Source: Fimbriimonadaceae bacterium (lineage in GTDB: Bacteria > Armatimonadota > Fimbriimonadia > Fimbriimonadales > Fimbriimonadaceae). From it: 36,528 nt of DNA. The translations under genes and the position numbers were made by a program. The notes under the pieces are model-generated. The model worked only from the letters and a program-made list of their open reading frames with translations, was not told where the DNA came from and made no database searches. Location: contig JAHBTC010000015.1 in assembly GCA_019638835.1 (NCBI GenBank), positions 1-36,528 of the forward strand, read 5' to 3'. The first letter of the stretch is position 1. Each line of letters begins with the position of its first letter. Below, piece after piece: positions 1 to 36,528 of this stretch.

Positions 1-1
1 C

Positions 2-17040: not shown

Positions 17041-17046
17041 AGTGCT

Positions 17047-17062
17047 GGCGTGACTACACGCC
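17047..17062. terminator. shared hairpin between the thioredoxin-like gene and the 49-codon gene
   Basis: GGCGTG-ACTA-CACGCC is a perfect 6-bp stem with a tetraloop. It starts 7 bases after the thioredoxin-like stop codon and contains, in its loop, the TAG stop of the convergent 49-codon gene. Confidence 0.55.
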
Positions 17063-17203: not shown

Positions 17204-17298
17204 AAGTGAAAGAACGTTCTAAGACACCAAAACGGTTTCATAGCCTCATTGTTCGAAGTGACTTTGTCGAATACCAGCAGTTTGGTAAGGTGAAATCC

Positions 17299-19596: not shown

Positions 19597-19598
19597 CG

Positions 19599-20054: not shown

Positions 20055-20055
20055 T

Positions 20056-20553
20056 TTATTCCCATTCTTCCGGACCGCGCCACAACTCCCAGATGTGGGA
20101 TTCGCACCACTCCTCGGAAGGATCTTCTCCCGCCAACCGCAGGCCCAACAAGATCAATCCCGCGTGATAGCCCTCATGCCAGACCATATGTTGCATAAAG
20201 AGAACGGCATTGTCGTAAGGGCCAAACTTGCCTCCACTCTTGAGTCCGGCTTCCGTAGCCTCCCGCACAGCTCTTTCGCTTACGGTGAGTTGGCGTCGAA
20301 TTTCGTCAAGATCTTCGATCGGAACCCCCATCGCGCCATCGTCCATTAATGCGTCTCCAAGGGTTTTGGCGAGTTCGGGCATACATTTGGAGAGCCACCA
20401 GTAGCGAACCTCGTGGATGTGGGCGAGTTGATAATCAAGCGTCCAACCGTCTGAAGAAGGTTTTGCCTTTCGGTTCGTCTCGTTCACGAGACCAGCGAGC
20501 GAATCGATGATCTTGGCCTGTCGGTCCCACGATTCGAGTAAGAGTTCCGTCAC
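20056..20553 (-). CDS. DinB-like protein (second copy)
   Basis: This 165-residue four-helix protein has the DinB-superfamily metal-site pattern: YQLAHIHEVRYWWLSKC after helix 2 (His in LAHIHE) and MQHMVWHEGYHAGLILLGLR in the third conserved segment (several His, with HxxxH). Such proteins usually bind Ni or Zn through three His; their enzymatic roles are varied. It is only distantly similar to the copy at 6973-7449, so they are not a recent duplication. It converges on the DUF6508-like gene with a single base between stops. Confidence 0.8.
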   Translation of the reverse strand: MTELLLESWDRQAKIIDSLAGLVNETNRKAKPSSDGWTLDYQLAHIHEVRYWWLSKCMPELAKTLGDALMDDGAMGVPIEDLDEIRRQLTVSERAVREATEAGLKSGGKFGPYDNAVLFMQHMVWHEGYHAGLILLGLRLAGEDPSEEWCESHIWELWRGPEEWE

Positions 20554-21003
20554 ACAATCAGTATAGCAGACGGATGTCTACTTTTACCACTTGCTGGCTC
20601 TAAGTTGATTCAGCGATAAAGGAGTGTAAGATTTCAAGATTAGCTTGCCTACTTGCTTTCCCGTGGCAAGAACTAATCAATCTTGAATAGACCCTCTAAG
20701 ATTGGTATCCGAATTCCTACAAAGGGCTGTTCATCCTTGGTTTCGACTTCGAAGTCGTCGATTGCCCAAGATAAACTTCACAGATTCCTCGGAAGTGTTC
20801 AATCGATCGTTCGACTGGATGTTTGAGTATCTGATCAATGCCATTCTGTGGCGTGCAACTCCTCACGCGCTGCTTGCTAAGCTGCCGCCGCATACAAAGG
20901 GCGTATAAACCTAAGGTGCATAGTTCGGGCCGTGAATTCCCAGTCTGTCCGCAGCAAGGAACTAGGCTGCCTTGTGTTGCTCATGGCAACCACATCAAAG
21001 ATT
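20554..21003. other. gene-poor region between the DinB-like gene and tRNA-Leu
   Basis: About 450 bp without a convincing gene. It holds an imperfect inverted repeat (20633-20687). The only long open frame is a 68-codon one starting with TTG at 20702, and it has no recognisable domain. I could not match the stretch to tmRNA, SRP RNA, RNase P RNA or 6S RNA by eye. A structured RNA or an untranslated leader is possible. Confidence 0.5.
20633..20687. repeat. imperfect long inverted repeat
   Basis: TTCAAGATT (20633-20641) pairs with AATCTTGAA (20679-20687), and CTTGCC (20644-20649) pairs with GGCAAG (20665-20670) inside it. There is an unpaired stretch of 2 bases on one side and 8 on the other. 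The loop is 15 nt. Two nested perfect stems suggest a folded RNA or a protein site. Confidence 0.5.
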
Positions 21004-21090
21004 TGGTGCCCAGGAATGGACTCGAACCATCACCCCCTTGCGAGGACTAGTACCTGAAACTAGCGCGTCTACCAATTTCGCCACCTGGGC
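21004..21090 (-). tRNA. tRNA-Leu (anticodon CAG)
   Basis: Read on the minus strand this is a class II tRNA. The acceptor stem GCCCAGG / CCTGGGC is perfect, and the discriminator A and CCA are encoded. The anticodon loop TTCAGGT within CTAGT/ACTAG gives anticodon CAG (Leu, CUG codons). The long variable arm and the T-loop GGTTCGAGTCC are normal. Confidence 0.95.
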
Positions 21091-21130
21091 ACAGATGGAA
21101 GTCAAAGTATGACAGCCCAGCAGGTTGGGG

Positions 21131-22099
21131 TTAGGCCCCCTTCTTTAGGCGATCCATGGCGAGTCCACGTGCGGCATCAAGTGTCGCGGCCTCGGCCGTG
21201 AGTGAAACGATCCAATGGCCACTTCGCCGTACAATCACTTTCAGAAATCTGTCTTCGTCGCGAATCTTGCGGCGAACGATGGCTTCAAACGCATCGTCTG
21301 TTTTTTTGCCTTCAATAAACTCCACTTCGAAGTCCGCCGTCCCTTGAACGGCGTCAAGTGCGGTCTGCTCATCAGAGATTTCCGGTGCTTCAACTTTTCT
21401 TTGTCGCACGTCCAGAACCCAGTTAATCTCGTCTTCGTAGCGCATCGCTCGCAGGATCGCCGTGTCGTCTGCTCGCGGCTCCAATCCAATTTGAGGCAAA
21501 AAAGGCGCCCTTGAATCCACGCCAAATGGCACGCCGAGGATTGAGTAAGTTCCAGTGTTTCCAAACTTGTTCGCGAGTTCAGCGGGCGGATCGTTGTCAC
21601 CCCATTTGCTGTCGCGAAGTGAAGTGAATGCGTTAGCGTACTGACTCGCGGAATAGGACACCCAAATCGCTTCGTATGCGTGGGTCTCCGTACGAAAAGC
21701 CGCTGAGTTGAAATATATCGAGATCACATTGTTCGTCGCGCCGGGGCCGAGCATCGAACCGGTCACCGAAACGAAAGGCAACTCACCCAACTTTGTCTTC
21801 TGGGTCAGAAAAAGTTGCGCGGCAAAAGTTCGATTGGTGCGCTGTGCACGGTCGTGAAGGTCAAGAAAATCCTCGGAGTCCGGTACGTTCGCGAGACCCG
21901 ATAAGTCGGTCTTCATGATGCGGATCGCTTCGACGAACGCGTCACCGTCCTTCACCTCTCCCGACCATACGGTTGTGTTGCCTTCCTCCGTCTTCGGCAA
22001 GTTGATCGGTACGTTGATTTTCCAGCCATCAAAGTCCTGCACGACCGAATGGGCGGCAGCAGAGCAAGCAAGAAGCAGGATGAAAGAGGCCAGACGCAT
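21131..22099 (-). CDS. secreted protein of unknown function
   Basis: This 322-residue protein has a signal peptide (LASFILLLACSAAAHS). The body looks like two related alpha/beta domains. The first starts DFDGWKINVPINLP, and the second region has GTADFEVEFIEGKK with VIVRRSGHWIVSLT; both contain alternating strands and charged helices. No family was recognised. It is divergent from pilB across a 90-bp spacer and follows tRNA-Leu on the same strand side. Confidence 0.8.
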   Translation of the reverse strand: MRLASFILLLACSAAAHSVVQDFDGWKINVPINLPKTEEGNTTVWSGEVKDGDAFVEAIRIMKTDLSGLANVPDSEDFLDLHDRAQRTNRTFAAQLFLTQKTKLGELPFVSVTGSMLGPGATNNVISIYFNSAAFRTETHAYEAIWVSYSASQYANAFTSLRDSKWGDNDPPAELANKFGNTGTYSILGVPFGVDSRAPFLPQIGLEPRADDTAILRAMRYEDEINWVLDVRQRKVEAPEISDEQTALDAVQGTADFEVEFIEGKKTDDAFEAIVRRKIRDEDRFLKVIVRRSGHWIVSLTAEAATLDAARGLAMDRLKKGA

Positions 22100-22189
22100 G
22101 AAGTGCTAGACGCCCCAAGTGCGATGCCAGATTCGCCTACCCAGTAGGAATGCCAGGGTCTTCGAGTTCCCGAATGTGGAACGAGACTC

Positions 22190-23920
22190 GTGGCGATGTT
22201 GACGGGCGACGTGTTCGTGAGCGAAGGGCTCATCACGGACGATCAACTCCAATTGGCGATTGCCAAACAGTTGGAGTTGGGCGGCACCGAACCAATTGCG
22301 CGTGTCATGGTGGACATGGGCATCATCTCCGAGCGTGATCGAGTGCGTCTCATGGGGAAGGTTTGGGGAATCACATTTGCCGACGTTTCCACCGTAACGC
22401 CCGAAGCGGATGCGATCGGCCTCGTTACCGCCCAGACCGCCAAACGATTCAAGTGCCTTCCGCTTGCCCGACGCGGAGACAAGTTGATCGTTGCGATGGC
22501 AAATCCGCTCGATGTATTCGTCATTGACGAATTGCGGATGAACACCGGCCTCGAAATCGAACCTGTTATCGGCGTCGAGAGCGACATCCTGGAATCGGTG
22601 GGAGCGATCTATAAGGTCGAAACCAGCAATGTAAGCGAAGCCCTGCAAGGGATGATGAAGGACTTTGATGGCGACATGGCCATCCAGTCCGGCGATGACG
22701 AAGAGGATATCTCGGCCGACCAACTCAAGGCGATGGGAGAGGATGCTCCTATCGTGCGCCTCGCCAACCTCATCGTCAATCAAGCCGTTGCCGATGGCGC
22801 GAGTGACATCCATATTGAACCGCGTCGTGACGGGTTGGTGGTGCGCCTTCGTGTGGACGGCATCATGTTGGAGGCGATGCGCCTGCCGAAAAAGGTAATC
22901 GCGCCCCTTACTAGCCGATTCAAGATCGTCGCTAACATGGATATCGCGGAAAAACGTGCGCCCCAAGACGCCCGCATTTCGGCCGTGATCAACGGCAAAG
23001 AGTACGATTTCCGTGTCAACACGCTTCCGCTTATTTACGGCGAGAAGATCGTCATGCGCGTCCTCGATAAGGGCGGTATCAGCATCGGTTTGAGCAAACT
23101 TGGCTTCCTTGAGCACAACCTGAAGATGCTCGAAGATATGGCTCAGCGATCCTATGGCATTGTGTTGGTGACCGGGCCGACAGGGTCTGGAAAGTCCACG
23201 ACGCTTTACTCGCTGATCAACCAGACCAACGACGGCCTCAAGAACATCGTTACGATTGAAGATCCGGTCGAATACGAACTCGAAAGTATCAACCAATGTA
23301 GCGTGAACAACCGCGCGGGGATGACCTTCGCGGCAGGTTTGCGCGCCATGCTCCGCCAAGACCCTGACGTCATCATGGTCGGTGAGATGCGGGATAACGA
23401 GACCGCGACAATTGCCATGGAAGCGGCATTGACCGGTCACTTAGTGTTCAGCACACTCCACACAAACGACGCGCCCAGTGCCCCGACGCGCTTGATCGAC
23501 ATGGATGTCGAGCCGTTCTTGATCTCGTCATCCATCGTCGGAGTTCTGGCGCAACGTCTGATCCGCGTCATCTGCCCAAAATGCAAAGAGAGTTACACGA
23601 CCTCTCGGGAGAGTCTCTTGCGATACGGATTCCCGGTTCCGGAAGAGGTCGGTGCCGAAACAGGTGGGGAGGTCACATTGTTCCGTGGTGCTGGTTGCGA
23701 CCACTGTAAGGGAACTGGGTTCAAGGGCCGAAGCGGCATTCACGAAATGCTGGAAGTTTCGGACGAGATCCGAGATCTGATCTTGCACGGTCAGCCCGCC
23801 CACATCATACGCAAAACGGCGCTGGAGCAAGGAATGAAGACGCTTCAGATGGATGCGGTTCAGAAGATTCTTATGGGTAACACGTCGGTAGATGAAGTCT
23901 TGAGGGTCGTTTACTCCTAA
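22190..23920 (+). CDS. pilB: type IV pilus extension ATPase PilB (GspE family)
   Basis: This 576-residue cytoplasmic motor drives pilus assembly. An N-terminal GSPII_E_N-like domain opens with LTGDVFVSEGLITDDQ. The ATPase core holds Walker A GPTGSGKST (about 329-337), the Asp box TIEDPVEYEL, Walker B-like DPDVIMVGEMRD, and the His box TGHLVFSTLHTNDA. The tetra-cysteine zinc module typical of PilB/GspE is present: CPKC and, later, CDHCKGTGFKGR. The start is GTG 22190, with GGAACGAG at good spacing; ATG 22196 is two codons in. HDOD and pilT genes follow on the same strand, a natural operon for pilus dynamics. Confidence 0.96.
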   Translation: MAMLTGDVFVSEGLITDDQLQLAIAKQLELGGTEPIARVMVDMGIISERDRVRLMGKVWGITFADVSTVTPEADAIGLVTAQTAKRFKCLPLARRGDKLIVAMANPLDVFVIDELRMNTGLEIEPVIGVESDILESVGAIYKVETSNVSEALQGMMKDFDGDMAIQSGDDEEDISADQLKAMGEDAPIVRLANLIVNQAVADGASDIHIEPRRDGLVVRLRVDGIMLEAMRLPKKVIAPLTSRFKIVANMDIAEKRAPQDARISAVINGKEYDFRVNTLPLIYGEKIVMRVLDKGGISIGLSKLGFLEHNLKMLEDMAQRSYGIVLVTGPTGSGKSTTLYSLINQTNDGLKNIVTIEDPVEYELESINQCSVNNRAGMTFAAGLRAMLRQDPDVIMVGEMRDNETATIAMEAALTGHLVFSTLHTNDAPSAPTRLIDMDVEPFLISSSIVGVLAQRLIRVICPKCKESYTTSRESLLRYGFPVPEEVGAETGGEVTLFRGAGCDHCKGTGFKGRSGIHEMLEVSDEIRDLILHGQPAHIIRKTALEQGMKTLQMDAVQKILMGNTSVDEVLRVVYS

Positions 23921-23967
23921 TCCTTCGCCCGATTTGAACCGAAAACAAGAAGAGGAAAAACAACGGA

Positions 23968-24834
23968 ATGTCGGCGGCACCCCTGAGAGATAACAAGGCT
24001 TCAATTGAACGCGTTCTTGGCACAAGTAGCGAGATCGCGGTCATGCCGCAGGTTGTTTACAAAATCGTTGAGATGGTCCGCTCGGAGAGTTCATCGGCGA
24101 GCGATCTCGAACGAGAAATCGTTGTCGATCCGGCATTCTCGGCGAAAGTTCTGGCTCAGGCGAACTCCGCTTTCTTTGTCCTCCCCAAGAGAGTCACATC
24201 GATCCGGGAAGCAGTAATGTTTCTTGGGTTCAAACAAGTTCGCATGATCGCGATGCAAGTTGGTGTATTCGACTTCTTCGTGGGCAAAACTGACAAGGAC
24301 TCGCTGCGCCGTAGAACCTGGTGGCGCCATGCACTTGACACGGCGGCGGCAGCTCGATCATTGGCCGTAGAGATTCGGAAAGGAAACGCGGACGAAGCGT
24401 ACACCTGTGGACTCCTCCATAGCCTCGGCAAGACGTTGCTTTGTCGTCACGATGCAGAGGCATACACAAAGGTTGAGTATCTAATGGAGCATGGCGCACC
24501 CGCTTGGCAGGCCGAGCAGACAATTTACGGTTGTCATCACATTGAAGTGATTCAGGCGGCCGGCAAGCATTGGGGACTCCCGGTCGAGATCGTTGAAGGT
24601 CTGGACTATCTTTCTCCGGCAGACGGCGATGACTTCGCGAACCTTCGCGCAGTGGTTGCGATTGGTGAAGGTATCGCGACGCTATCTACCCATGGCAGCA
24701 GCGATCCCGAGCATGACGCCGAGCGACTGCCCGAATGGGCTCTCAACCAACTAGAAATTGACCCTGATGCCGTGCAAGGCATTGTGGCGAGCACCCTCGC
24801 CGAACTGGCCGCAACCGCGGCAAAGAACCATTAA
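23968..24834 (+). CDS. HDOD-domain protein between pilB and pilT
   Basis: This 288-residue HDOD-domain protein has an N-terminal part (EIAVMPQVVYKIVEMV, VVDPAFSAKVLAQANSAFF, TSIREAVMFLGFKQVRMIA) typical of HDOD regulators. The HD-like metal site is degenerate: GLLHSLGKTLL has His151-Ser152 where HD phosphohydrolases have His-Asp. HDOD proteins generally act as binding or scaffolding modules in signalling, not as enzymes. Its place between the two pilus ATPase genes (47 bp after pilB, 15 bp before pilT) suggests a role in controlling pilus extension or retraction. No output domain is attached. Confidence 0.92.
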   Translation: MSAAPLRDNKASIERVLGTSSEIAVMPQVVYKIVEMVRSESSSASDLEREIVVDPAFSAKVLAQANSAFFVLPKRVTSIREAVMFLGFKQVRMIAMQVGVFDFFVGKTDKDSLRRRTWWRHALDTAAAARSLAVEIRKGNADEAYTCGLLHSLGKTLLCRHDAEAYTKVEYLMEHGAPAWQAEQTIYGCHHIEVIQAAGKHWGLPVEIVEGLDYLSPADGDDFANLRAVVAIGEGIATLSTHGSSDPEHDAERLPEWALNQLEIDPDAVQGIVASTLAELAATAAKNH

Positions 24835-24849
24835 GGAACGGAGCGTAAC

Positions 24850-26784
24850 GTGAGCAATCAAGACGGATTCGATTGGAAGAAAGTCATCGGTGAGGGCGAT
24901 CAGTCCATCCCCGATGGTAAGTCGAAAGAGGAAGAACTGCACGACATTTTGCGGCAGATCTCGGACGCAAAGGATAACGACGTTGCCGGTCCACACTCTC
25001 CAGATCAATCAGATGTAGCTGCCAGTTCCGAGCCCCAAGAGTCTTCGGAGTCGCCGCAGGCATCGGACGTGGACGATGATCTTGATGTCTCAGAGGTCGG
25101 GCATCCAGTCAATTCACAGGATGACTTGATTCACGAAGAATCGGGCGACGAAGTTTGGAAGGCCGAGTCCGATGCTCTTCCCCCGAGTTCTTGGGCTTCG
25201 GACGAAATCAGCGACGAAGGGGCCGAAGCGCATGCGGACGATCACTTCGACAAACCGGACTCCGAGCCCGAAGGGGATGACGACACCGAACTCTCCTTCT
25301 CAATGGACGATGGGCCGGGAACGGAAGATCACGACTTGCCCACACCACTCCACATTGCGCCCTCCGCACCCCCGAAGATGGAGATTCCCGCCGAGGTCAT
25401 TGATCCGAAACTTACGGCAGAGGAACCGAGCATTGAATCGGAGGAGCCGACAGGAGAATCATCTATGAACGAGCAAGAACTCGCAAAGAAGTCTCCTGTT
25501 CCGGACATCTTCACCAAGAATATGCCGAAGGAAACGGAGAAACCGACCCTTTTTGGCTATGGTCCAGATCCCGACGATGTTTCTCCCATTGACCAAAACT
25601 CTCCTGCATTCGTACCTGAAGGCGTTCGGGAAGTGGAGAAGCCGAAAGGAAAGTACTTTATAGACGACGAGCTACAGGAAGAAGGAATCGTCCGCACCGG
25701 GGAAGACTTACGACCGCTTCTCGGAGTGCATATTGATGAGATCCTGCGCATGGCCGTTGAGCGCAAAGCCAGTGACGTTCATATTTCAACTGGCTTGCCG
25801 CCAATGATCCGCATGGACGGTGAGATCGTACCGCTACCTTTCGAGATTATCAATCCGCAGGAAGCCCAACGCTTGATTTACGAAACCCTCACCGATGAGC
25901 AACTGGAGAAGTTTGAGCAAACGCACGAACTCGACTTTGGATACTCGGTCAAGGGGTTAGCCCGATTCCGCTTCAACGTGTATATGCAGCGCACGTCAGT
26001 CGCGGGGGCCCTGCGCATGATCCCCAATCGGATCCCGACGTTTGACGAATTACGGCTCCCGCCGATCATCCGGGAAATCAGCAAGCGATCGAGTGGTCTC
26101 GTTTTGGTTACGGGACCGACGGGTAGCGGTAAGTCCACTACGATTGCCGCGATGATTGACGACATCAACGAGACGCGTCAATCACATATTCTGACCATCG
26201 AAGACCCGATCGAATACTTACACCGTCACAAAAAGTGCATGGTCAATCAGCGCGAAATGCACAGCGACACGTATTCGTTCCACGGTGCGCTTCGGGCCGT
26301 CCTTCGCGAAGACCCAGATGTTATTCTCGTTGGAGAGTTGCGTGATCTGGAAACGATCGAAGCGGCTCTAACTCTGGCCGAAACGGGGCACCTTGTCTTC
26401 GGCACTCTGCATACCCGGAATGCTCCGGCGACGATTGACCGCGTCGTGGATGTGTTCCCGGCGGATCAGCAGGATCAGATTCGTGTTCTCATGGCGAACA
26501 CGATCGAAGGCGTTATCTCCCAACAACTCTTGCCAAAACTCGGCGGGGGCCGCGTCGCGGCACTTGAAATCATGACCGGAATCCCGGCCATCAAGAACTT
26601 GATCCGCGAGGGCAAGACGCATCAGATGTATTCCATCATCGAGACGAACAAGAACGTTGGGATGCGCACCATGGACGCGAGCCTCGCCGAGTTGTTCCGT
26701 CAAGGGGATGTCAGCTATGAAGAATGTTTGATGCGAGCGGTGGACAAGGAGACGTTTGCTCGCCTCGCGAAGAGCGCGGCGTAA
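24850..26784 (+). CDS. pilT: pilus retraction ATPase PilT with long acidic N-terminal extension
   Basis: The 644-residue product has two parts. Residues about 294-644 are a complete PilT, about 350 residues as usual: HIDEILRMAVERKASDVHIS, Walker A GPTGSGKST (422-430), LTIEDPIEYLH, DPDVILVGELRD, TGHLVFGTLHTRNA, and GGGRVAALEIM. Residues 1 to about 290 are an extension dominated by Asp, Glu, Ser and Pro with almost no hydrophobic core, probably disordered. It has a short ordered-looking start (DGFDWKKVIGEG) and a later segment KPTLFGYGPDPDDVSP. The start is GTG 24850, with GGAACGGAG in front. The core is expected to depolymerise pili for twitching movement. The extension could bind a regulator, for instance the adjacent HDOD protein. 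Confidence 0.95.
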   Translation: MSNQDGFDWKKVIGEGDQSIPDGKSKEEELHDILRQISDAKDNDVAGPHSPDQSDVAASSEPQESSESPQASDVDDDLDVSEVGHPVNSQDDLIHEESGDEVWKAESDALPPSSWASDEISDEGAEAHADDHFDKPDSEPEGDDDTELSFSMDDGPGTEDHDLPTPLHIAPSAPPKMEIPAEVIDPKLTAEEPSIESEEPTGESSMNEQELAKKSPVPDIFTKNMPKETEKPTLFGYGPDPDDVSPIDQNSPAFVPEGVREVEKPKGKYFIDDELQEEGIVRTGEDLRPLLGVHIDEILRMAVERKASDVHISTGLPPMIRMDGEIVPLPFEIINPQEAQRLIYETLTDEQLEKFEQTHELDFGYSVKGLARFRFNVYMQRTSVAGALRMIPNRIPTFDELRLPPIIREISKRSSGLVLVTGPTGSGKSTTIAAMIDDINETRQSHILTIEDPIEYLHRHKKCMVNQREMHSDTYSFHGALRAVLREDPDVILVGELRDLETIEAALTLAETGHLVFGTLHTRNAPATIDRVVDVFPADQQDQIRVLMANTIEGVISQQLLPKLGGGRVAALEIMTGIPAIKNLIREGKTHQMYSIIETNKNVGMRTMDASLAELFRQGDVSYEECLMRAVDKETFARLAKSAA

Positions 26785-26790
26785 GAAAAC

Positions 26791-26831
26791 ACATTCCCGC
26801 TCTCTTGCCAATGGGCAAGGGGCGGGAATGT
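26791..26831. terminator. long hairpin terminator between pilT and a small minus-strand gene
   Basis: ACATTCCCGC (26791-26800) pairs with GCGGGAATGT (26822-26831), and inside it CTTGCC pairs with GGCAAG around an AATG loop. On the minus strand it is followed by GTTTTCTTAC. The stem starts 6 bases after the pilT stop codon and touches the stop codon of the convergent small gene. Confidence 0.8.
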
Positions 26832-27058
26832 CATGCCGGCCGAACGCGACTCACCACCACCAAACCATTCTCGCCGAGCGACTTCGATTTCCGGAGATAG
26901 AACGCCGCTCCCGGCGTATTCACGGCATAGAACACATCGGCATCATCGAGATATACAATCCCTAAGCCCGGAACCTCGACGTCCGTCGGTACGGTCGGCT
27001 TGCCAAGTTCCTCCCAAGTAAGGTAGTAACGGTCACCCACCACGGGTTCAAAGGCCAT
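26831..27058 (-). CDS. 75-residue protein of unknown function
   Basis: This small protein (PVVGDRYYLTWEELGKP, VPGLGIVYLDDADVFYAV, GLVVVSRVR) is probably a compact beta-rich domain. No family is recognised. Support comes from a GGAGGT Shine-Dalgarno-like sequence 12 bases before the ATG, a terminator hairpin at its end, and aligned gene borders on both sides. Its ATG overlaps that of the divergent diacylglycerol-kinase gene (CATG), so neither gene has its own promoter space downstream of the other's start. Confidence 0.65.
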   Translation of the reverse strand: MAFEPVVGDRYYLTWEELGKPTVPTDVEVPGLGIVYLDDADVFYAVNTPGAAFYLRKSKSLGENGLVVVSRVRPA

Positions 27059-27953
27059 GCCAGTAACGATACCTCCGGGAACTGAGACCGTCCTCCTTCA
27101 CAATCGGGTTGCGGGACCTCGGCCATTCCCGGGATTGGAGTCTGCTCCTGAGTTTCGCCTTCACCCGACTACACCCGAAGAAAGCACGGAGATCGCTCGA
27201 GAAGCGGCAATTGCCGGTGTTCAACGGATTATTGTCGCGGGAGGAGACGGCACCCTGCGCGACGTGGCCCGGGGAATCGTCGGCACCCAGACAGCCGTCG
27301 CGATTCTGCCCGCAGGTACCGCGAACGACTACGCCGCCAGTGCAGGCATCCCGAAAGAGGCAGGACAAGCGTGGGAACTAGCGAGGAATGGTGTCGCGAC
27401 CCGAGTTGATGTGGCTAAGGTTAACGGAGACCTGATCAGCATCAATATGGGAGGCATCGGATTTGATGCCGAAGTTGTCCGTCGGTACCACCAAGGCGCC
27501 GCTTGGCAACGCAAGTTGCCGGCCCGGCTCCGCTATCACCTCAGCATCTTCGGCACCTTTGCCAAGTTCAAGGGGGTGCGTGCTCGCCTTGATTTGGATG
27601 GAGAAGTCATTGAGATCGACCGGCTCATGTTGCTTGCATTTGGCTCAGCAAGGCAATACGGCGACGGCATGGTGATTGCCCCCGACGCTCGATTGAGCGA
27701 TGGCCTCTTAAATGCGGTTTGGGCGACGGAATTGTCGGCGGGTGAACTCGCAGGATTACTACCAAAGCTAACTGCGGCAGGTCACGTAGGGCACCCGAAA
27801 GTAACGATGCGGACGTTTCATTCTTTGCGAATTGAAACGGACCCCCCGGCGGCGTTCCACATTGAAGGAGACTTGCAAGGTCATGCGCCAATTGAGATCA
27901 AAGTGTTACCAGCGGCCCTCAATGTCGTGGCGGGCTCGAACGCAGTTCTCTAA
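27057..27953 (+). CDS. diacylglycerol kinase-family lipid kinase
   Basis: This 298-residue protein has the DAGK/YegS-type catalytic domain. It shows the nucleotide-binding GGDGTLRDVARG (GGDGT about 62-66), the substrate-side LPAGTANDYA, and INMGGIGFDAEVVRRY. The C-terminal beta domain has FGSARQYGDGMVIAPDARLSDG and HIEGDLQG, characteristic of the family. It phosphorylates a lipid such as diacylglycerol or a relative; which one cannot be told. The ATG at 27057 is the only reasonable start, although upstream sequence is the coding region of the divergent small gene. The end overlaps pyrE by 4 bp, tail to tail. Confidence 0.93.
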   Translation: MPVTIPPGTETVLLHNRVAGPRPFPGLESAPEFRLHPTTPEESTEIAREAAIAGVQRIIVAGGDGTLRDVARGIVGTQTAVAILPAGTANDYAASAGIPKEAGQAWELARNGVATRVDVAKVNGDLISINMGGIGFDAEVVRRYHQGAAWQRKLPARLRYHLSIFGTFAKFKGVRARLDLDGEVIEIDRLMLLAFGSARQYGDGMVIAPDARLSDGLLNAVWATELSAGELAGLLPKLTAAGHVGHPKVTMRTFHSLRIETDPPAAFHIEGDLQGHAPIEIKVLPAALNVVAGSNAVL

Positions 27954-28519
27954 GCCGTGGGGCGAGTTCCCGGCTTAGTTACAGGAAGTTTCGCAAGCCA
28001 ATCGGGAATCTCTTCCTCAGACCACGATTGGGCGGTGACCTCATAGGCTGCGCCAATCGGGCAACCTAACTGGACACAGCCACCGGACCGGTCAATCAGC
28101 ACTTCAGCGGCCAGGACAACGCCACCGGCGTTCTCAATCACCACCTTCGATTCTTGGAGTGACAAACCAGTTGTGAGAACATCATCAACCAATAGTACGC
28201 GCGCGCCTGCCTCAATAGATGCCCCTCGCCGGAGCATCTTTTCGCCATTCTCTGACTCAACATACACCGATCGAACGCCCAGTTGACGAGCCGCTTCGAA
28301 CGCAATGAGGATGCCGCCAGTCGTTGGCCCAGCGACCACATCTATTGTCCCTGGAGCGTGCCGCGAAAGGAAGGCGGAGACTAACGCGCTCACCACGTCG
28401 GGTCGTTCCAGAACGCGAAATTTCTCAAAATAGATGTCGCTGTGCCGACCGCTCGTCAAGATGAAATGTCCACGGAGGATGGCCCCGGCGTCTTCGAGCA
28501 GTTGTTCTAGTTCAACCAT
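27950..28519 (-). CDS. pyrE: orotate phosphoribosyltransferase
   Basis: This 189-residue enzyme attaches ribose-5-phosphate from PRPP to orotate in pyrimidine synthesis. The type I PRTase PRPP motif is VLLVDDVLTTGLS (about 108-120). LTSGRHSDIYFEKF near the N terminus and the flexible-loop region ESENGEKMLRRG are as expected for PyrE. It is last in the ccmE-ccmF-panD-pyrE operon and overlaps panD by 8 bp, so it is probably translationally coupled. Confidence 0.95.
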   Translation of the reverse strand: MVELEQLLEDAGAILRGHFILTSGRHSDIYFEKFRVLERPDVVSALVSAFLSRHAPGTIDVVAGPTTGGILIAFEAARQLGVRSVYVESENGEKMLRRGASIEAGARVLLVDDVLTTGLSLQESKVVIENAGGVVLAAEVLIDRSGGCVQLGCPIGAAYEVTAQSWSEEEIPDWLAKLPVTKPGTRPTA

Positions 28520-28874
28520 GAACGGTAAAGGGCGTCATATCCCGCACGATCTCATTTGATTCGTTGACGAGCACCATTTGCGGAATCACGGGTTCATCGG
28601 TCATGCAGAAGGCGGCAATGATCACGCGATCACCTTCCTTGAAAAAGTGAGCAGCACCTCCGTTCAACCCGATGACCCCGTTCGGACCCCGGAACACGTA
28701 AGTCTCCAATCGAGATGTGTGGTCCACGGCCCATACATGAACGAATTCGCCATCCATCAAGCCAACTGCATCCATGAGGTCGCCACCGACTTCAATGCTG
28801 CCCACGTAATCGGGGTTCGCATAGGTCACGCGAGCGTGGTGGATCTTAGATTTGAGTAGTTGGCTGAACTTCAT
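28512..28874 (-). CDS. panD: aspartate 1-decarboxylase (pyruvoyl enzyme precursor)
   Basis: This 120-residue proenzyme makes beta-alanine for pantothenate and CoA. It has LKSKIHHARVT at the start and the self-cleavage site DYVGSIEVG, where the bond between Gly25 and Ser26 would be cut to form the pyruvoyl group. TSRLETYVFRG and IGLNGGAAHFF carry the expected active-site residues. The start overlaps the end of ccmF by 29 bp and the end overlaps pyrE by 8 bp. It is embedded in a cytochrome-biogenesis operon; the other pan genes are not in the window. Confidence 0.95.
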   Translation of the reverse strand: MKFSQLLKSKIHHARVTYANPDYVGSIEVGGDLMDAVGLMDGEFVHVWAVDHTSRLETYVFRGPNGVIGLNGGAAHFFKEGDRVIIAAFCMTDEPVIPQMVLVNESNEIVRDMTPFTVHG

Positions 28875-31266
28875 CCGACTCCTTGCTTTGGACGTTAGAT
28901 TCTCCGCTTTCGTCGTTGCCCGAACGGTCTTCCTCCCCGGTGTCTCTTCCGGAGGTGGGTCCGACGGACCCTTTCCGATAGCGTGCTGACATCAGTCCTC
29001 CGAAGGTCATGAGGCCGACCCCGAGCCAGACGAGAATCGTAAGAGGCTTATAGAAAACTTCGACCGGATAAGCGGGGTTGATATAAAAAAGGGTTGCCAC
29101 GGCGTCCCCGGTTTCAGCCATCACCGCGTCCAATCGCAACTCGTACACATCGTCCAGACGTGCCATAACGGGTTCCGCGCCACCAAGAACCAACTTCAGT
29201 TCTGGCTTGACGATCTTCGGTTCGCCGTCAAGGCCCTGAAACTCGAATTCGGCGATGAAGTGCGCACCCGGCCCGATTTCACCGTTCGACGTATATCCCT
29301 TGTACGTAAGTGTGATCTGTTGGTGAGCCCGCAAATCCCCTTTCGCAAACGTTGTCGGGTTTGAAGCCTGAAAATCCATCGGATACACGATGAGGATGAG
29401 ATCCCAGAAGGGATGCCTGCGAATCGCAGGCCAGACGACTGGATTAGGATCGCCACCGGGTTCGTTCGGAGGCATAAAGTAGAGGCCGGGATTCGCTTCA
29501 AATTCTTCGCCATTACCTCGCACCAAAACGCGCATTTTGTTGTGCCTGTCTGTGAACTGGTACGGAGCGTCGAGGTACGCGAGCCGATAGCCAAAGGCTT
29601 CTCCGGGAATATCGGGGTGAACCAACGTCTCCGCCTTCTGTTCGAATCCTCGGGAGAAGATCAGTCCCAACAAGGTCATGGCAAACCCGAAGTGAGTGAT
29701 GAGACCGCCGATAGATGGCCGTGCTCGCTTCCACAACGCAGCGGCGGCGGCTAGATTCGTCACCAGCGCAAAAACGCACAACCAGGTTAGGAACAGCACG
29801 AATGGTAAGGCGGGAACGTTTTGACCCCACGACATTTCGACGGTCCGATCCATGGGGAATGGAATCCAGACTCGGTCACTATTCAGCCCCACAAGCAACA
29901 TGCCTGTAATGAAAATGGAGACGGCCAGCAACTGATTGACTTTGACCAGCAAGTCTCGGCCCCTCATCCCGCGCCAAGTGACCATCGGGAACAGCGCTAA
30001 CGCCAACATGAAGGGTGGAAAGAACCAACTCAGCACGGAGTGATAGAGATGTTCTTCCACCATCTTTGGTTGCACCCCTCGCAGGGACATGATCATGGGC
30101 ACACTCATGCCGAATGCGGTGATGACACCGAATGCAATGAGGAGCCAGATCGCAGTGGCATATCCCGACGTTCGATTCAACGGGAAAGATTCAATCGGTT
30201 TGGCCTCGGTATCAGGGGACTTTCGTGCGGCAATCAGTCGTACCGTCCAAAGGGCGAGGAATCCGAAGATCGCAAACCCTGCGATTCCCACCAAAATCCA
30301 CAGTGCGCTCCGGTCCATCTGGGCGAAAGAATGAACACTGGTGTCGCCCAAGAATCCGGAGCGAGTGAGGAAGGTTCCGTAGCAGAAGCACATAAACGGA
30401 ACGGCTCCGAGTAAAGCCGTGCTGAGATGCCACTTTTTGCGGGCGATTTGGACAAAGATCGCGTGAATAAACGCGACCATGGTCACCCAGGGAACGAAGC
30501 TGGTGTTTTCCACTGGATCCCACATCCAGAAGCCGCCCCAGTTGAGCATCTCGTAAGCCCAAAACCCACCCATACAAAGGCCGAGTCCGTTGAAGGTTAA
30601 GCCGAATAGCGCCCAAGGTCGAACGATAGGAACCCAGTCATTCAAGTTCCTCTTGATGAGCGCGGCCGTCGCCAAGGCAAAGGGAACAATCAGGGCGCCA
30701 AACCCAAGGAAGATTGTGGGCGGATGAATGACCATCCAGTAGTTGAGCAAGGCAGGGGAGAGCCCGCGTCCATCAAGTGGCATCCGCAGCACACCGTTCA
30801 AAGGCTCAATCAATCGAAACGGCGACTCAAAAGCAAGAATTCCGGCGAGTGATCCGAGGATTGCCGCACATATTGCGAGGAAGGCTCCTTCGTACTGTGC
30901 CGTGCGCCTTCGGGCAAACCAAGCGCAAGCGGTGCTCATCAGTGCCCAGAGAAGGAAAGAACCCTCTTGCCCCGCCCACACCGCTGAAATCCGGTACTGC
31001 AACTCCAAGTCCTTCATCGTGTGTTCCCACACGTATCCAAAGTGGAATTGCCCCGTGACCGAAAGAGAAAGTAGGCAAAGGAAAGCCCCCACGATGCTGA
31101 ACGAACCGATATGGAACGCCCATCGCTGGACGCGCAATCTTTCGGTGAATCCGAGAACAGTGGTAGCGAGGAATGAAATCGCAGAGAGAACGATTAATCC
31201 ACGTCCGAGGGTACCGACAGCAAGCGACCAGGCCGGCGGGTCAACGAAGAGCGCGTTTGGGTTCAT
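28846..31266 (-). CDS. ccmF: cytochrome c-type biogenesis protein CcmF
   Basis: This 806-residue multi-spanning membrane protein is of the heme-handling family (System I heme lyase component). WAGQEGSFLLWA (about 97-108) and the WWD domain WGGFWMWDPVEN (243-254), with HPPTIFLG and other periplasm-facing His residues, define it. A large C-terminal soluble domain lies around residues 560-720, and one last membrane helix is followed by a charged Ser/Glu/Asp-rich tail. It takes holo-CcmE heme and ligates it to apocytochrome. The start overlaps ccmE by 4 bp. Other ccm genes (A, B, C, D, G, H) are not in the window. Confidence 0.95.
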   Translation of the reverse strand: MNPNALFVDPPAWSLAVGTLGRGLIVLSAISFLATTVLGFTERLRVQRWAFHIGSFSIVGAFLCLLSLSVTGQFHFGYVWEHTMKDLELQYRISAVWAGQEGSFLLWALMSTACAWFARRRTAQYEGAFLAICAAILGSLAGILAFESPFRLIEPLNGVLRMPLDGRGLSPALLNYWMVIHPPTIFLGFGALIVPFALATAALIKRNLNDWVPIVRPWALFGLTFNGLGLCMGGFWAYEMLNWGGFWMWDPVENTSFVPWVTMVAFIHAIFVQIARKKWHLSTALLGAVPFMCFCYGTFLTRSGFLGDTSVHSFAQMDRSALWILVGIAGFAIFGFLALWTVRLIAARKSPDTEAKPIESFPLNRTSGYATAIWLLIAFGVITAFGMSVPMIMSLRGVQPKMVEEHLYHSVLSWFFPPFMLALALFPMVTWRGMRGRDLLVKVNQLLAVSIFITGMLLVGLNSDRVWIPFPMDRTVEMSWGQNVPALPFVLFLTWLCVFALVTNLAAAAALWKRARPSIGGLITHFGFAMTLLGLIFSRGFEQKAETLVHPDIPGEAFGYRLAYLDAPYQFTDRHNKMRVLVRGNGEEFEANPGLYFMPPNEPGGDPNPVVWPAIRRHPFWDLILIVYPMDFQASNPTTFAKGDLRAHQQITLTYKGYTSNGEIGPGAHFIAEFEFQGLDGEPKIVKPELKLVLGGAEPVMARLDDVYELRLDAVMAETGDAVATLFYINPAYPVEVFYKPLTILVWLGVGLMTFGGLMSARYRKGSVGPTSGRDTGEEDRSGNDESGESNVQSKESDEVQPTTQI

Positions 31267-31667
31267 TTCTGGGCGGACTCGCCGCCAGACTCGCTCTCAT
31301 ACTTCGACGGACATTTGAGAAGTAAGTCGCGCGCCTCAAAAGCGCCATCCTGGAAACCACCAATCGCGACGACTCTGTCAGCCGTTCGCAAGTTGGGCGG
31401 GGCAGGCCGCTTGTAAACCACAGGGAGCAAGTCGCCCTTGTCATCTTGAAGCATGAAACTGACCTTTGCGCTCCCGCTTGCCGTGGTCTGAATACTTCCC
31501 GGCACGATTACGCCTGCAAGGTGAAGGTTGTCGCCGCTCATTGTTTTGGCTTCGGCAACGGTCACATAAGGACTGCTTTGCATCAGGAATGCAAAGACGA
31601 CCCCGGATAGTGCGAGGACCGAAACCAGCACGACCACAATTGCAGTGAGATTCTTCTGCTTCGCCAC
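31263..31667 (-). CDS. ccmE: heme chaperone CcmE, Cys-type (CxxxY)
   Basis: This 134-residue membrane-anchored OB-fold heme chaperone has an N-terminal helix (AIVVVLVSVLALSGVVFAFLM) and the CcmE strands HLAGVIVPGSI, VSFMLQDDKGDLLPVVYK and VVAIGGF. In most bacteria the heme is bound covalently through the His of an HxxxY motif. Here the motif reads CPSKY, so Cys119 replaces that His and Tyr123 is kept. A Cys-type variant is known from archaea and some sulfate-reducing bacteria. The start is GTG 31667. It is first of the overlapping ccmE-ccmF-panD-pyrE series. Confidence 0.93.
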   Translation of the reverse strand: MAKQKNLTAIVVVLVSVLALSGVVFAFLMQSSPYVTVAEAKTMSGDNLHLAGVIVPGSIQTTASGSAKVSFMLQDDKGDLLPVVYKRPAPPNLRTADRVVAIGGFQDGAFEARDLLLKCPSKYESESGGESAQK

Positions 31668-31769
31668 GGCTTATGTAAGTGTACGCGAGTCTGGCGAGAA
31701 TCGTTGGTCCGAAGGAGTGGGAACGACCCGTATGGTCCGGGTGTTTTGCTTCATAATTAGGTCAGTTTC

Positions 31770-32312
31770 ATGCACGTGCGAGGCTCTATCGTTGTTCTAG
31801 GGGCATCCCTGCTAGCCGCCGTAATGTGGGCGCAACCCGCTACTCCGGCGCAAATGGGATCGATTCCTGATAAGCCTGAGTACGGCACTTTGCACTTGTC
31901 AACTCGCCTGGGCAGTTTCCGAACGATTGATGGAGTTGGTCGGGCAGAGTTCACCTTCTCCGGCACGGTCCTGGTCAGCAAACTCAAAGGCAAGGTGACC
32001 ATGAGTGGAAACGTTCGCGAGGAGTACAAGGACGAAGAGCGTGCTGTGTACCACGGAACTGGTCGATGCGTCGTGGAAGGCGAATGGCGAGCGGTTCAGT
32101 GGTTCGGACGCGATATGAACTTCGTTTGGTACGGAAAAGGAATCGCTCGCGTCACCGGAGACTTCGACGCCAATCAAGAAACCGGCTGGTATTGGTACGA
32201 CGATCCGACAGACCGTATGCCGTGGCCCGCCGCCAATAGCCGAGATGTAGTTTTGCCGAAACGAGGCGTTACCGACCGTATTCCCACCATCCGACCACGA
32301 AGTGGCGGATAG
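31770..32312 (+). CDS. secreted protein of unknown function
   Basis: This 180-residue protein has a signal peptide (IVVLGASLLAAVMWAQP). The rest is beta-rich and aromatic (LHLSTRLGSFRT, FTFSGTVLVSKLKGKVTMSG, GEWRAVQWFGRDMNFVWYG), suggesting a small beta-barrel or sandwich. No known family was recognised. It is followed after 2 bp by the exonuclease-like gene, so the two are probably co-translated although the products would be in different compartments. Confidence 0.75.
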   Translation: MHVRGSIVVLGASLLAAVMWAQPATPAQMGSIPDKPEYGTLHLSTRLGSFRTIDGVGRAEFTFSGTVLVSKLKGKVTMSGNVREEYKDEERAVYHGTGRCVVEGEWRAVQWFGRDMNFVWYGKGIARVTGDFDANQETGWYWYDDPTDRMPWPAANSRDVVLPKRGVTDRIPTIRPRSGG

Positions 32313-32314
32313 GC

Positions 32315-33109
32315 GTGGTCGAACGCTCGTTTTTTCATATTCCGCACGTTGGACAAGCCAGCGAAGTGAGACTGTGGGCCGCCGGATGCCACGACTGGGA
32401 TTGCTTCGAATCTGATCCATCTTCGTGGCCCCTAACCCAAACACAGCGTGAGTCCATGAAATCGATGATTGGCTTCTCACGCAACGCCCTCGCTGCCGGT
32501 GACTACCGGTTCTTCGCTGAAGCGATGCCGGGCGAAGTCTGGCGAACGTGGCCTTCCTTCCGCGACCGAGTTTGCTACTTGGATATAGAAACTGACGGGG
32601 GATTTACCGGCGACGCGATCACCGTCATCGGTCTGTACGATGGATTTGAGTTTCGCTGTCTAGTGAAAGGTCAAGATCTAGACGAGTTTCCCGATCTCAT
32701 TGCCGACCGGGCAATGTTTGTCACCTTCTTTGGGTCGGGATTCGATATTCCGATGCTGAAAAAGCGATTCCCTCAACTTCCGTTCGATCAACTTCATTTT
32801 GATTTGTGTCCGGCATTCCGAAAAGTCGGACTGAAGGGTGGACTCAAAAAGATTGAAGTAGAACTTGGGATAGACCGAGGGGACGACACCTACGGATTGG
32901 ATGGACGAGACGCGATCCGACTTTGGAACTCCCATCGGTACGGACGGGAAGGCGCACTCGAACGACTGATCGCCTATAATCGGGAGGACGTCGTAAACAT
33001 GGAAACCCTCGCCCATATCGCTTACGAACGGCTGGCACGGCAAACGCTCGACCCTGCAGGCTTGGGCCACATCGCACGCGACCTTGTAAAGAAATCCCGT
33101 ATCGTTTGA
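32315..33109 (+). CDS. DEDD-type 3'-5' exonuclease, YprB-like (RNase H fold)
   Basis: This 264-residue nuclease-like protein has a ribonuclease-H fold exonuclease core. Motif I is YLDIETDGG (Asp90, Glu92), motif II is the FFGSGFDIPMLKKRF region and motif III is YNREDVVNMETL. The arrangement matches YprB/RNase_H_2 proteins. The acidic residues would bind two metal ions for hydrolysis of DNA or RNA ends. The N-terminal ~85 residues contain no known domain. The start is GTG, two bases after the previous stop codon. It ends 5 bp from the convergent threonine aldolase gene. Confidence 0.85.
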   Translation: MVERSFFHIPHVGQASEVRLWAAGCHDWDCFESDPSSWPLTQTQRESMKSMIGFSRNALAAGDYRFFAEAMPGEVWRTWPSFRDRVCYLDIETDGGFTGDAITVIGLYDGFEFRCLVKGQDLDEFPDLIADRAMFVTFFGSGFDIPMLKKRFPQLPFDQLHFDLCPAFRKVGLKGGLKKIEVELGIDRGDDTYGLDGRDAIRLWNSHRYGREGALERLIAYNREDVVNMETLAHIAYERLARQTLDPAGLGHIARDLVKKSRIV

Positions 33110-33114
33110 GGTCG

Positions 33115-34158
33115 TTAGTGGCCAGGGGAGAATGAGAGGCTAGCGGCGATTTCTTGTGCTTTGTCGTAGGCGAGTTCAATGCCTGCATCATCCACATCAT
33201 AGTGCGTGACAAAGCGCACTTTATTCGGCCCGAAGGGCACCGCACCGATACCGTGGCTCGCCAACGCATCAACCCAAGTGTTCGCGGGGATGACGGTTTC
33301 GACAATCACGATATTGGTTGCGGGCACCTTCGTCTTCATGCCATTCACGTCGTCGAGCAGGGTCGCGAGTCGCTTAGCCCGCACGTGGTCTTCGGCCAGA
33401 CGATCGTACATTTGCTCAATCGCAACGAGGCCACACGCGGCGAGCAGTCCGGATTGTCGCATCCCGCCGCCGAGTCGCTTTCTCCAGAAGCGGGCTTCTT
33501 CAATAAACTCGCCATTCCCCACGAGCACAGAGCCAACGGGAGCACCGAGACCCTTACTAAGGCAAACACTCATAGAATGAGCGTGGTTTGCGAGTTCTTT
33601 GGGCGTAACTCCAAGCGCGATGGCCGCATTCCAGATGCGGGCCCCGTCTATATGGAAGATGGCGCCCTTTGAGACGGCGTAATCCTGCATCGCGGCCAAG
33701 GTGTCTCTATCGGTCACTGCACCCCCATGTCGGTTGTGCGTGTTTTCCGCGCAGACGCAGGTCGTTCCCGGAGTATGTACGGATCTTTCGAGCCACTTAC
33801 TTCGTATGCTGTCGAGACTCGGAACACCGTCCGCACTCTCGTATGAAATCGCCAAGACCCCAGCAAGCACGGCAGGCGAACCTCCCTCGTAATACAGCAT
33901 GTGGGCTTCTTCGTCAAAAAGCGCACTATCTCCGGGGCGGCAATGGACTGCTAGGGCAACCTGATTGCCCATAGTGCCGCTTGGAACGAATAAGCCAGCC
34001 TCATGTCCCAGCAAATCGGCAACCGATTCCTCAAGTTTGCTGACCGTAGGGTCATCCCCAAGCACATCATCGCCCAACGGCGCCCGCGCCATCGCTTCGT
34101 ACATCGCAGGCGTTGGGCGAGTAACGGTGTCGCTTCTGAGATCAACGCGCAACGGCAT
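33115..34158 (-). CDS. low-specificity L-threonine aldolase
   Basis: This PLP enzyme of about 347 residues is of the aspartate-aminotransferase fold. It cleaves L-threonine or allo-threonine to glycine and acetaldehyde. It shows [44 protein letters not shown] (PLP-binding Asp) and the lysine that forms the internal aldimine in [14 protein letters not shown] prefer ATG 34158 because conserved sequence starts there; the alternative at 34194 adds 12 residues. The start overlaps the end of the alpha/beta hydrolase gene by 17 bp, indicating one operon. Confidence 0.93.
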
Positions 34159-34903
34159 GATCAAAGACTCGACGTAAGAAAGAGGTGGCTTCATGCCGGA
34201 TCTTCAGCCACCCATCCATCGTGAACGAGTGCGCTTCACCTTCGAGTTCGAGAAGCGTGACAAGTCGTCCGTCCTGCACTGCCTGGGCTGCGAACGCACG
34301 GCTCTGTGAAACAGGCACAATTTCGTCATCTCGACCATGGATGACAAGCAACGGGCATCGTAGATTCTCTAGCAGAGTGATCGGACTTGCGGCTTCATAG
34401 GCTTCGGGCTTTTCGGACGGCAACCCACCCATGAATTGCTCCACGAACGAAAGCGCAATCTGGAATTCAGCCTGATCCGTCCCCCGAACGTCCGTAATGG
34501 GGCAGATCGCGACGGACGCTGCAAGGATGGAAGCAGGATCGAGCGCTGCCATCAAACTCAGATGTCCGCCCGCACTATTTCCGAAACTGACAATCCGTTT
34601 TGGATCGCAGCGCAACTCGTCGGCTTCAGTTGCCAGGTGCCAAAGGAAGGCATTAACGTCATCAACTGCAGCGGGGAACGGGTAAAGCGGAGCGAGTCGA
34701 TACTCCGGCGTTGCCACCGCATAACCTTGGCTCACCCAGTATGGAGCTTCATCGGCATACATGGACCGATCACCGCTGATCCATCCGCCCCCGTGCCAAA
34801 AGACGATGGTGGGAAACGGGCCGGGGCCCTCCGGCACGTACCAATCGTAGAGAAGCGGCTTACCATGACCGCCGGGATATTCCCGCGCCATTGAATGACC
34901 CAT
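34142..34903 (-). CDS. alpha/beta hydrolase (HSL/acetyl esterase-like)
   Basis: This 253-residue cytoplasmic esterase-like enzyme has the oxyanion motif HGGGW (37-41), a nucleophile elbow GNSAGG (Ser110), an acid in HGRDDEIVP (Asp192 or Asp193) and the His in GEAHSF (225). No signal peptide is present. The substrate is unknown; the HGGG motif places it with the hormone-sensitive-lipase-type esterases. It is upstream of and overlapping the threonine aldolase gene. Confidence 0.9.
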
Positions 34904-34946
34904 TACGACTTAGTCTAGCCGAACGGTGCGCCCTTTCACACAAAGA

Positions 34947-34979
34947 AACGCCCTGTCCCAGCGAGTGGTACAGGGCGTT
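34947..34979 (-). terminator. intrinsic terminator after the secreted protein gene at 34993
   Basis: AACGCCCTGT and ACAGGGCGTT form a perfect 10-bp stem, with an inner CCA/TGG pair in the loop. On the minus strand it is followed by TCTTTGTG. It lies 13 bp past the stop codon. Confidence 0.82.
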
Positions 34980-34992
34980 GAAGTTGAATCCT

Positions 34993-35847
34993 TTAGTCTT
35001 GGATTCGCTCTTCTTTCGTGTTCATCGTGTTGCTCACGATGACCACGTTCATATCAATGGTCTGCGACATATCAGACTCGAACTTGGTGGTGACACCCGT
35101 TTGCATGTCCACCCACATCTTTGTCGTGCCGTTTGCTTCCATCGTTCCATCACCGGCTTGAGGCGAAGAAACCTTCAATGTGCCCGCCGTAATCGCGGTG
35201 ATGACTGCGTGGGGCTTGCCCTTATAGTCTTCAACCGAAATCACTTTGTAGACCACGTCAACCGCGTCGCTGGAAGTGACCATGCCACCCGAAACGTCTT
35301 CGAGCATGCGGCCCATGTAGAACTTCTGCGTCCAAGTCGTTCCGGCTTTGATACCGTCGCTCGGGAACTTGAGTCCCATGATTCCGAGGTCATTCATGGC
35401 TTGACCTGCACCGCCCAGCGCCATTGCAACCATGGGATCGGTTTGATCGGCACCCTTGAGTGTGAATCCACGGATTTGACCAAACTCGTTGACTTCACCC
35501 GTGATTTGCACCTGCTCCGTCAACTTCTTCAGGTCTTCGGTGGACGGACCACCCATCGGCGTCTCGCCATCGTTTTCGATGACTACGTCACTGTTCGAAA
35601 TTGTGAACGGAGTCCAGCCTTCCTTTGCCTCGCCCAACTTGAAGGTCCGAACCATCGATTGGGTCGAAGCATTCGCCATTTCAAGCGCGCCGGAAATGTT
35701 CATTGTCGATTTCGTTTCAGACTTGAACTTGTAGACCTCGCCCGAACTCATTCGGAGTCGGACTGCGGTGGCATCTTGAATCGCCGCACCGGCAACGGCT
35801 ACCAAAGCGAGGGCGGCCGCCGCCCATCCATATGTACGCATAGTCAT
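34993..35847 (-). CDS. secreted protein of unknown function (DUF6263-like)
   Basis: This 284-residue protein has a signal peptide (WAAAALALVAVAGAAIQ). The body is beta-rich: VYKFKSETKSTMNISG, QVQITGEVNEFGQIRGFTLKG, GIKAGTTWTQKFYMG and a C-terminal MWVDMQTGVTTKFESDMSQT. The pattern recalls DUF6263 lipoprotein-like proteins, but that is only a guess. The gene is monocistronic, with a terminator downstream, and is the last gene with the composition of the main part of the window. Confidence 0.75.
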   Translation of the reverse strand: MTMRTYGWAAAALALVAVAGAAIQDATAVRLRMSSGEVYKFKSETKSTMNISGALEMANASTQSMVRTFKLGEAKEGWTPFTISNSDVVIENDGETPMGGPSTEDLKKLTEQVQITGEVNEFGQIRGFTLKGADQTDPMVAMALGGAGQAMNDLGIMGLKFPSDGIKAGTTWTQKFYMGRMLEDVSGGMVTSSDAVDVVYKVISVEDYKGKPHAVITAITAGTLKVSSPQAGDGTMEANGTTKMWVDMQTGVTTKFESDMSQTIDMNVVIVSNTMNTKEERIQD

Positions 35848-35978
35848 CTCTCAGAAGGGGCATCGCCCCACTCTGTTGAACTATACGTTTGGGAGTTGAA
35901 AAGGATGCAGTCCTGGCCTACCAATGTCCCAGCGGCGCAATTGCGCGGCCCAAGAGTCAAGTACGGACAAAGTTGGAA

Positions 35979-36055
35979 TGGCCCGGACGGAGGGATTCGA
36001 ACCCCCGACCCTCGGTTCCGAAGACCGATGCTCTGATCCGCTGAGCTACAGGTGC
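35979..36055 (-). tRNA. tRNA-Arg (anticodon TCG), acceptor stem mismatched (chimeric)
   Basis: Read on the minus strand, the D arm, anticodon arm (TCGGT-CTTCGGA-ACCGA, anticodon TCG, reading CGA), 5-nt variable region, T arm and CCA are normal. The acceptor halves are not: the 5' strand is GCACCTG but the 3' strand is CGTCCGG, and only about three of seven positions can pair. Each half looks like a good half of a tRNA from a different genome. The DNA composition changes across this gene, so it marks the probable join of two sequences. Confidence 0.8.
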
Positions 36056-36124
36056 AAGGCCCGCATCATACGAGAGCGGGCGGCAGTCTTCCGACCGCCG
36101 GTCCGCTCCCGGTATCCTGACCCC

Positions 36125-36528
36125 ATGACCGCCACCGCAGACTCCCCGGCATTGGCCCCCTCGTCCACCCTCATGAAGGGCAAGCGCGGGCTGATCGTCG
36201 GGATCGCGAACGACCACTCCTACGCCTACTTCATCGCCGAGCGGCTGCTGCGGCACGGGGCGGAGTGCCTCTTCACCCATCTGCCCGGGGAGAAGATGGA
36301 GCGGCGGTGCAGGAAGGCGATCGAGCAGCTCGGCGTCACCGACCCGTGGCTCGAGCCCATGGACGCCGGCAGCGACGAGGATCTCGATCGGGTCTTCCAG
36401 AAGCTCGCGGCCGAGGGGACGCAGATCGACTACCTCGTCCACTCGATCGCCTTCGCCGACAAGGACTGGCTGAAGGAGGGGGCCTTCACCGCGACGCCGC
36501 GGCAGGTCTTCACGCAGGCGATGGACAT
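36125..36528 (+). CDS. fabI: enoyl-[acyl-carrier-protein] reductase FabI, N-terminal part (cut by window edge)
   Basis: An ATG at 36125 opens a frame that runs to the window end (134 codons). It shows KGKRGLIVGIANDHSYAYFI (the SDR-type NAD-binding start of FabI), the D/E-rich mid region (PMDAGSDEDLDRVF) and IDYLVHSIAFADKDWL with QVFTQAMDI, all typical of FabI. The enzyme makes the last reduction in each fatty-acid elongation cycle. I count only five A/T-ending codons among 134, unlike any gene to the left. The gene therefore probably comes from another organism; a GC-rich one such as a planctomycete would fit, as a guess. Confidence 0.9.
   Translation, partial: MTATADSPALAPSSTLMKGKRGLIVGIANDHSYAYFIAERLLRHGAECLFTHLPGEKMERRCRKAIEQLGVTDPWLEPMDAGSDEDLDRVFQKLAAEGTQIDYLVHSIAFADKDWLKEGAFTATPRQVFTQAMD

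What the first reader, a model, noticed from the sequence alone, without database searches (positions are those of the whole stretch)
35979..36528. Sequence switch inside a tRNA-Arg: probable chimera or novel junction
The tRNA-Arg acceptor strands (GCACCTG versus CGTCCGG) do not pair, although every other arm is normal. To the left, genes have mixed codon endings; to the right, fabI has about 96% G/C third positions by my count. The simplest reading is that an assembler joined two genomes at the conserved body of a tRNA. Integration at a tRNA is less likely because insertions normally restore the acceptor stem, and the right side is a core gene, not an integrase. Anyone using this contig should not treat fabI as a neighbour of the main segment.
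Basis: partly seen in the sequence, partly recalled or inferred. Interest (0 to 1): 0.8.

Follow-up and report, generated by a model that had tools for sequence, protein, structure and literature searches.

The report
Chimeric contig joined within tRNA-Arg
The odd tRNA at the end of this contig is an assembly error: the last ~500 bases come from a different bacterium (a Phycisphaerae planctomycete) and were glued on at a 46-base stretch of a tRNA gene that the two organisms probably share, so the tRNA and the fabI fragment behind it say nothing about this genome's biology.

Summary
The window is one whole contig (C57) of a 207-contig draft genome. Its tRNA-Arg(UCG), minus strand 35979-36055, has a normal body, but only 3 of 7 acceptor positions can pair, and ARAGORN does not call it. 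Left of 35989 the tRNA matches a family relative (G004, intact CCGGACG/CGTCCGG). Right of 36034 it matches an intact tRNA-Arg(UCG) (GCACCTG/CAGGTGC) in a Phycisphaerae genome, and that same genome holds the closest fabI found (81% identity). The two parent-type tRNAs share an exact 46-nt block (35989-36034), where the switch must lie. In four relatives, three of them single-contig genomes, this tRNA is followed by motE-like, transglycosylase, fliJ and fliI genes. In the window's own genome these genes sit at the very start of another contig (C2), which is therefore the true continuation. The genome also has its own, different fabI (C68). The fabI fragment at 36125-36526 is foreign; in Phycisphaerae, fabI often lies beside a tRNA-Arg(UCG). 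This is a cross-species misassembly at a short shared repeat, not a biological junction.

The parts
1..35988 (.). Native segment of the window's own genome (contig C57)
   Evidence: Genes next to the tRNA are syntenic with closed genus/family relatives; uniform GC about 0.55.
35979..36055 (-). Hybrid tRNA-Arg(UCG): 5' part (GCACCTG, D loop) foreign; 3' acceptor (CGTCCGG) and CCA native
   Evidence: 3 of 7 acceptor pairs; not called by ARAGORN; Rfam match truncated to model 6-65.
35989..36034 (-). 46-nt block identical in both parent-type tRNAs: the interval within which the assembler switched genomes
   Evidence: Window is identical to Phycisphaerae G041 over 35989-36056 (68 nt) and to relative G004 over 35976-36034 (59 nt); overlap 46 nt.
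36035..36528 (.). Foreign end of the contig (Phycisphaerae, Planctomycetota)
   Evidence: tRNA 5' part identical to G041 tRNA-Arg(UCG); fabI 81% to the same genome; GC and GC3 jump.
36125..36526 (+). fabI, first 134 codons, cut by the contig end; foreign
   Evidence: Pfam PF13561 63.9 bits; best 80 loci nearly all labelled Phycisphaerae/Planctomycetota; 30-32% to the genome's own FabI on C68.
34993..35847 (-). Native gene (no Pfam family found) beside the tRNA
   Evidence: Orthologue 40% in G001 near its tRNA-Arg(UCG), and 28% in G008 adjacent to the tRNA; no Pfam match.

Best explanation
Assembly chimera. Two bacteria in one metagenome each carry a tRNA-Arg(UCG) gene, and the two genes share an exact core of about 46 nt (35989-36034). 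The assembler walked from the window's organism into that core and out into the Phycisphaerae genome, in which fabI lies beside the tRNA-Arg(UCG). This produced a hybrid tRNA and about 490 foreign bases at the contig end. The true continuation of the left side (motE-like, transglycosylase, fliJ, fliI) was left as the start of contig C2. Shown: both parent types of tRNA, the foreign origin of fabI, and the displaced native neighbour at C2. Inferred: that the sample was a metagenome, that the join was made by software and not in a cell, and the assembler step involved.
For: Acceptor mismatch. The left tRNA part is identical over 59 nt to relative G004, whose 5' acceptor is the matching CCGGACG. 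The right part is identical over 68 nt to an intact tRNA-Arg(UCG) in Phycisphaerae genome G041, which also holds the closest fabI. In the four relatives G001, G002, G008 and G011 (G001, G008 and G011 are single contigs) the tRNA is next to motE-like/transglycosylase/fliJ/fliI; in G000 these orthologues start at base 3 of contig C2, in the matching orientation. The genome has its own complete FabI on C68, 71% to a family relative. tRNA-Arg(UCG) lies within 300 bp upstream of fabI in 25 of 65 Phycisphaerae/Planctomycetota loci. No other tRNA-Arg(UCG) was found in the genome, so a real break would have destroyed the only copy. Compositional step at the same place.
Against: No reads were available, so coverage and pair spanning were not examined. 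The native 5' half of the tRNA was found in no contig, so the true left parent is inferred from G004. The two same-genus genomes carry a slightly different tRNA body, so the 46-nt length is an estimate. In G041 itself fabI and this tRNA are on different contigs, so the exact right parent is a related species, not G041.
Confidence: 0.97

Rival explanations
1. A real horizontal transfer: a piece of a Phycisphaerae chromosome recombined into the native tRNA-Arg(UCG) gene, splitting the motE-tRNA neighbourhood.
For: The join lies exactly in a tRNA gene, a common site of integration (established knowledge); C57 and C2 are not joined in the assembly, so an island between them is not formally excluded.
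Against: No integrase or element genes in the right-hand segment, as far as it goes; it is a core gene in a common Phycisphaerae setting. Insertion at tRNAs normally rebuilds the acceptor stem, but here it is destroyed in the only UCG copy found. The genome already has its own FabI. The foreign part shows no adaptation in GC3 (0.963).
Confidence: 0.02
2. A genuine unusual tRNA: a split, trans-spliced or mismatched tRNA-Arg whose acceptor is completed by editing or by another transcript.
For: Acceptor mismatch in an otherwise normal body.
Against: Relatives carry ordinary intact genes at this locus; the mismatching half is identical to a foreign tRNA and is followed by a foreign gene.
Confidence: 0.003

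Closest known systems
Inter-species misassembly in de Bruijn graph metagenome assemblies
   Same: Two genomes joined through a short exact shared sequence. [quoted passage not shown]
   Different: Nothing of substance; here the shared sequence is only a tRNA core of about 46 nt rather than a long repeat such as rRNA.
Genomic islands integrated at tRNA genes
   Same: The junction falls inside a tRNA gene.
   Different: No integrase seen, no restored tRNA; the right side is a chromosomal core gene of another phylum next to the 5' half of that phylum's own tRNA.

Membership tests
Inter-species assembly chimera | The two sides belong to different organisms | tested here: met
   Left: synteny with genus/family relatives. 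Right: fabI 81% to Phycisphaerae and 30-32% to own FabI.
Inter-species assembly chimera | The join lies in an exact sequence shared by both parents | tested here: met
   46-nt block 35989-36034 identical in G004 and G041 tRNA-Arg(UCG), used as stand-ins for the two parents.
Inter-species assembly chimera | The true continuation exists elsewhere in the assembly | tested here: met
   motE-like/transglycosylase/fliJ/fliI at the start of C2.
Inter-species assembly chimera | Break in read coverage or lack of spanning pairs | not testable with these tools
   No reads available.
Integration at a tRNA gene (genomic island) | Acceptor stem restored by the insertion | tested here: not met
   3 of 7 pairs.
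Integration at a tRNA gene (genomic island) | Integrase or element gene next to the tRNA | tested here: inconclusive
   Only a fabI fragment in the ~490 bases to the contig end; nothing beyond is available.

The most novel reading that the evidence does not exclude
A real recent recombination between tRNA-Arg genes of two phyla brought a Phycisphaerae chromosomal segment with fabI into this genome and left a hybrid tRNA.
Probability: 0.02. Interest if true: 0.5.

Novelty: not a real feature. Interest (0 to 1): 0.06.

Why it matters
It matters only for data quality. The last ~490-540 bases of this contig should be cut off: they add a foreign fabI fragment, a false tRNA-Arg that could hardly work, and ORFs that read across the join, and they hide the true link between contigs C57 and C2. 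A tRNA whose acceptor strands do not pair near a contig end is a cheap sign of a cross-species join.

Tried and rejected
Looked for an intact tRNA-Arg(UCG) elsewhere in the genome: none among the 44 tRNA-family matches, and no separate native 5' half (one search found only other tRNA genes: Arg TCT, GCG, CCG and CCT, Met, Phe, Trp). Checked plasmids for the right-hand segment: only two weak short matches. Checked whether G041, the closest fabI genome, has tRNA-Arg next to fabI: it does not, although many other Phycisphaerae do. Considered a genomic island and a split or edited tRNA; rejected for the reasons under the rivals.

Full report
What is there. The window is the whole of contig C57 (36,528 bases) of a 2.74 Mb, 207-contig genome. 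On the minus strand, 36055 to 35979, lies a tRNA-Arg with anticodon UCG and an encoded CCA. The D, anticodon and T arms are normal, but the acceptor strands GCACCTG and CGTCCGG make only 3 of 7 pairs, G-U included. ARAGORN does not call it. Rfam's tRNA model aligns only positions 6-65, at 47.6 bits. Seventy bases further right, fabI begins at 36125 and is cut by the contig end. Its GC3 is 0.963, against 0.614 on average (maximum 0.716) in 52 pieces of equal length from the genes to the left.

Left side. Relatives of the genome carry an intact tRNA-Arg(UCG). Most of their matches run from the 3' end of the gene up to 36049 and stop at the 5' acceptor strand. The best, in family member G004, is CCGGACG...CGTCCGG with all 7 pairs, and is identical to the window over 59 nt, 35976-36034. 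In same-genus G001, a single-contig genome, the genes left of the tRNA are orthologues of the window's genes at 32315-34903, in the same order, and an orthologue of 34993-35847 lies near the tRNA. So the left side and the 3' part of the tRNA are native.

Right side. A scan of the species genomes with the fabI fragment gave Phycisphaerae/Planctomycetota records for nearly all of the best 80 loci (a few are labelled only 'uncultured bacterium', and one carries a Candidatus Kuenenia label, also a planctomycete); the best is at 81%. The fragment is only 30-32% identical to the genome's own, complete FabI on contig C68, which in turn is 71% identical to FabI of a family relative. The genome with the best fabI (JAEUIU010000084.1, handle G041) also carries an intact tRNA-Arg(UCG), GCACCTG...CAGGTGC, identical to the window over 68 nt, 35989-36056, including the D loop AGCGGATCA that the left-hand relatives lack. 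In 25 of 65 Phycisphaerae/Planctomycetota loci examined, a tRNA-Arg(UCG) lies within 300 bp upstream of fabI, 15 of them in the divergent orientation seen here. The right side is therefore an ordinary tRNA-Arg/fabI neighbourhood of a Phycisphaerae species.

The join. The two parent-type tRNAs share exactly 46 nt, AGAGCATCGG...CCCTCC (35989-36034). The switch must lie inside this block. An exact repeat of this length is enough to merge two genomes in k-mer based assembly if small k is used (inference). [quoted passage not shown] Which assembler made this contig is not known to me.

The displaced native neighbour. In G001, G002, G008 and G011 the tRNA-Arg(UCG) is followed by a motE-like gene, a transglycosylase gene, fliJ and fliI (names by my reading of the sequences). 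In the window's own genome the orthologues of these four genes begin at base 3 of contig C2, on the minus strand, with the motE-like gene cut at its 3' end. Order and orientation fit C57 continuing directly into C2, with roughly 125 bases missing (estimated from G001). This is the strongest single argument, because it shows where the real sequence went.

Why not biology. The hybrid gene is the only tRNA-Arg(UCG) found in the genome, and with 3 acceptor pairs it could hardly work. The native genes on either side are conserved together in closed genomes, the foreign part has no element genes, and the genome has its own FabI. An island between C57 and C2 cannot be formally excluded without reads, but nothing speaks for it. 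I put the chimera at 0.97.

Noticed in passing
window 35924-36526 (+) and 35957-36442 (-): ORFs read across the false join; the + strand one extends the fabI fragment backwards by 67 codons through the tRNA, so automatic annotation may deposit a chimeric protein.
   Followed up: partly
L070-L142 (Phycisphaerae/Planctomycetota fabI loci): tRNA-Arg(UCG) lies within 300 bp upstream of fabI in 25 of 65 loci, in either orientation (15 divergent, 10 same strand); the recurrent neighbourhood with flipped tRNA orientation is not explained here.
   Followed up: partly
G000:C2:3-2879 (L197): Start of contig C2 holds motE-like, transglycosylase, fliJ and fliI genes and is the true neighbour of the right end of the native part of the window.
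   Followed up: yes
G000:C167:14451-14619 (L013): Two tandem tRNA-Cys(GCA) genes about 20 bases apart.
   Followed up: no
L175-L181: Within one family the tRNA-Arg(UCG) body has two forms: GCACCAGT...ACTGGGTGTC (G001, G002, G008, G011, G017) and GCATCGGT...ACCGAGGGTC (G004, G010, and the window).
   Followed up: no
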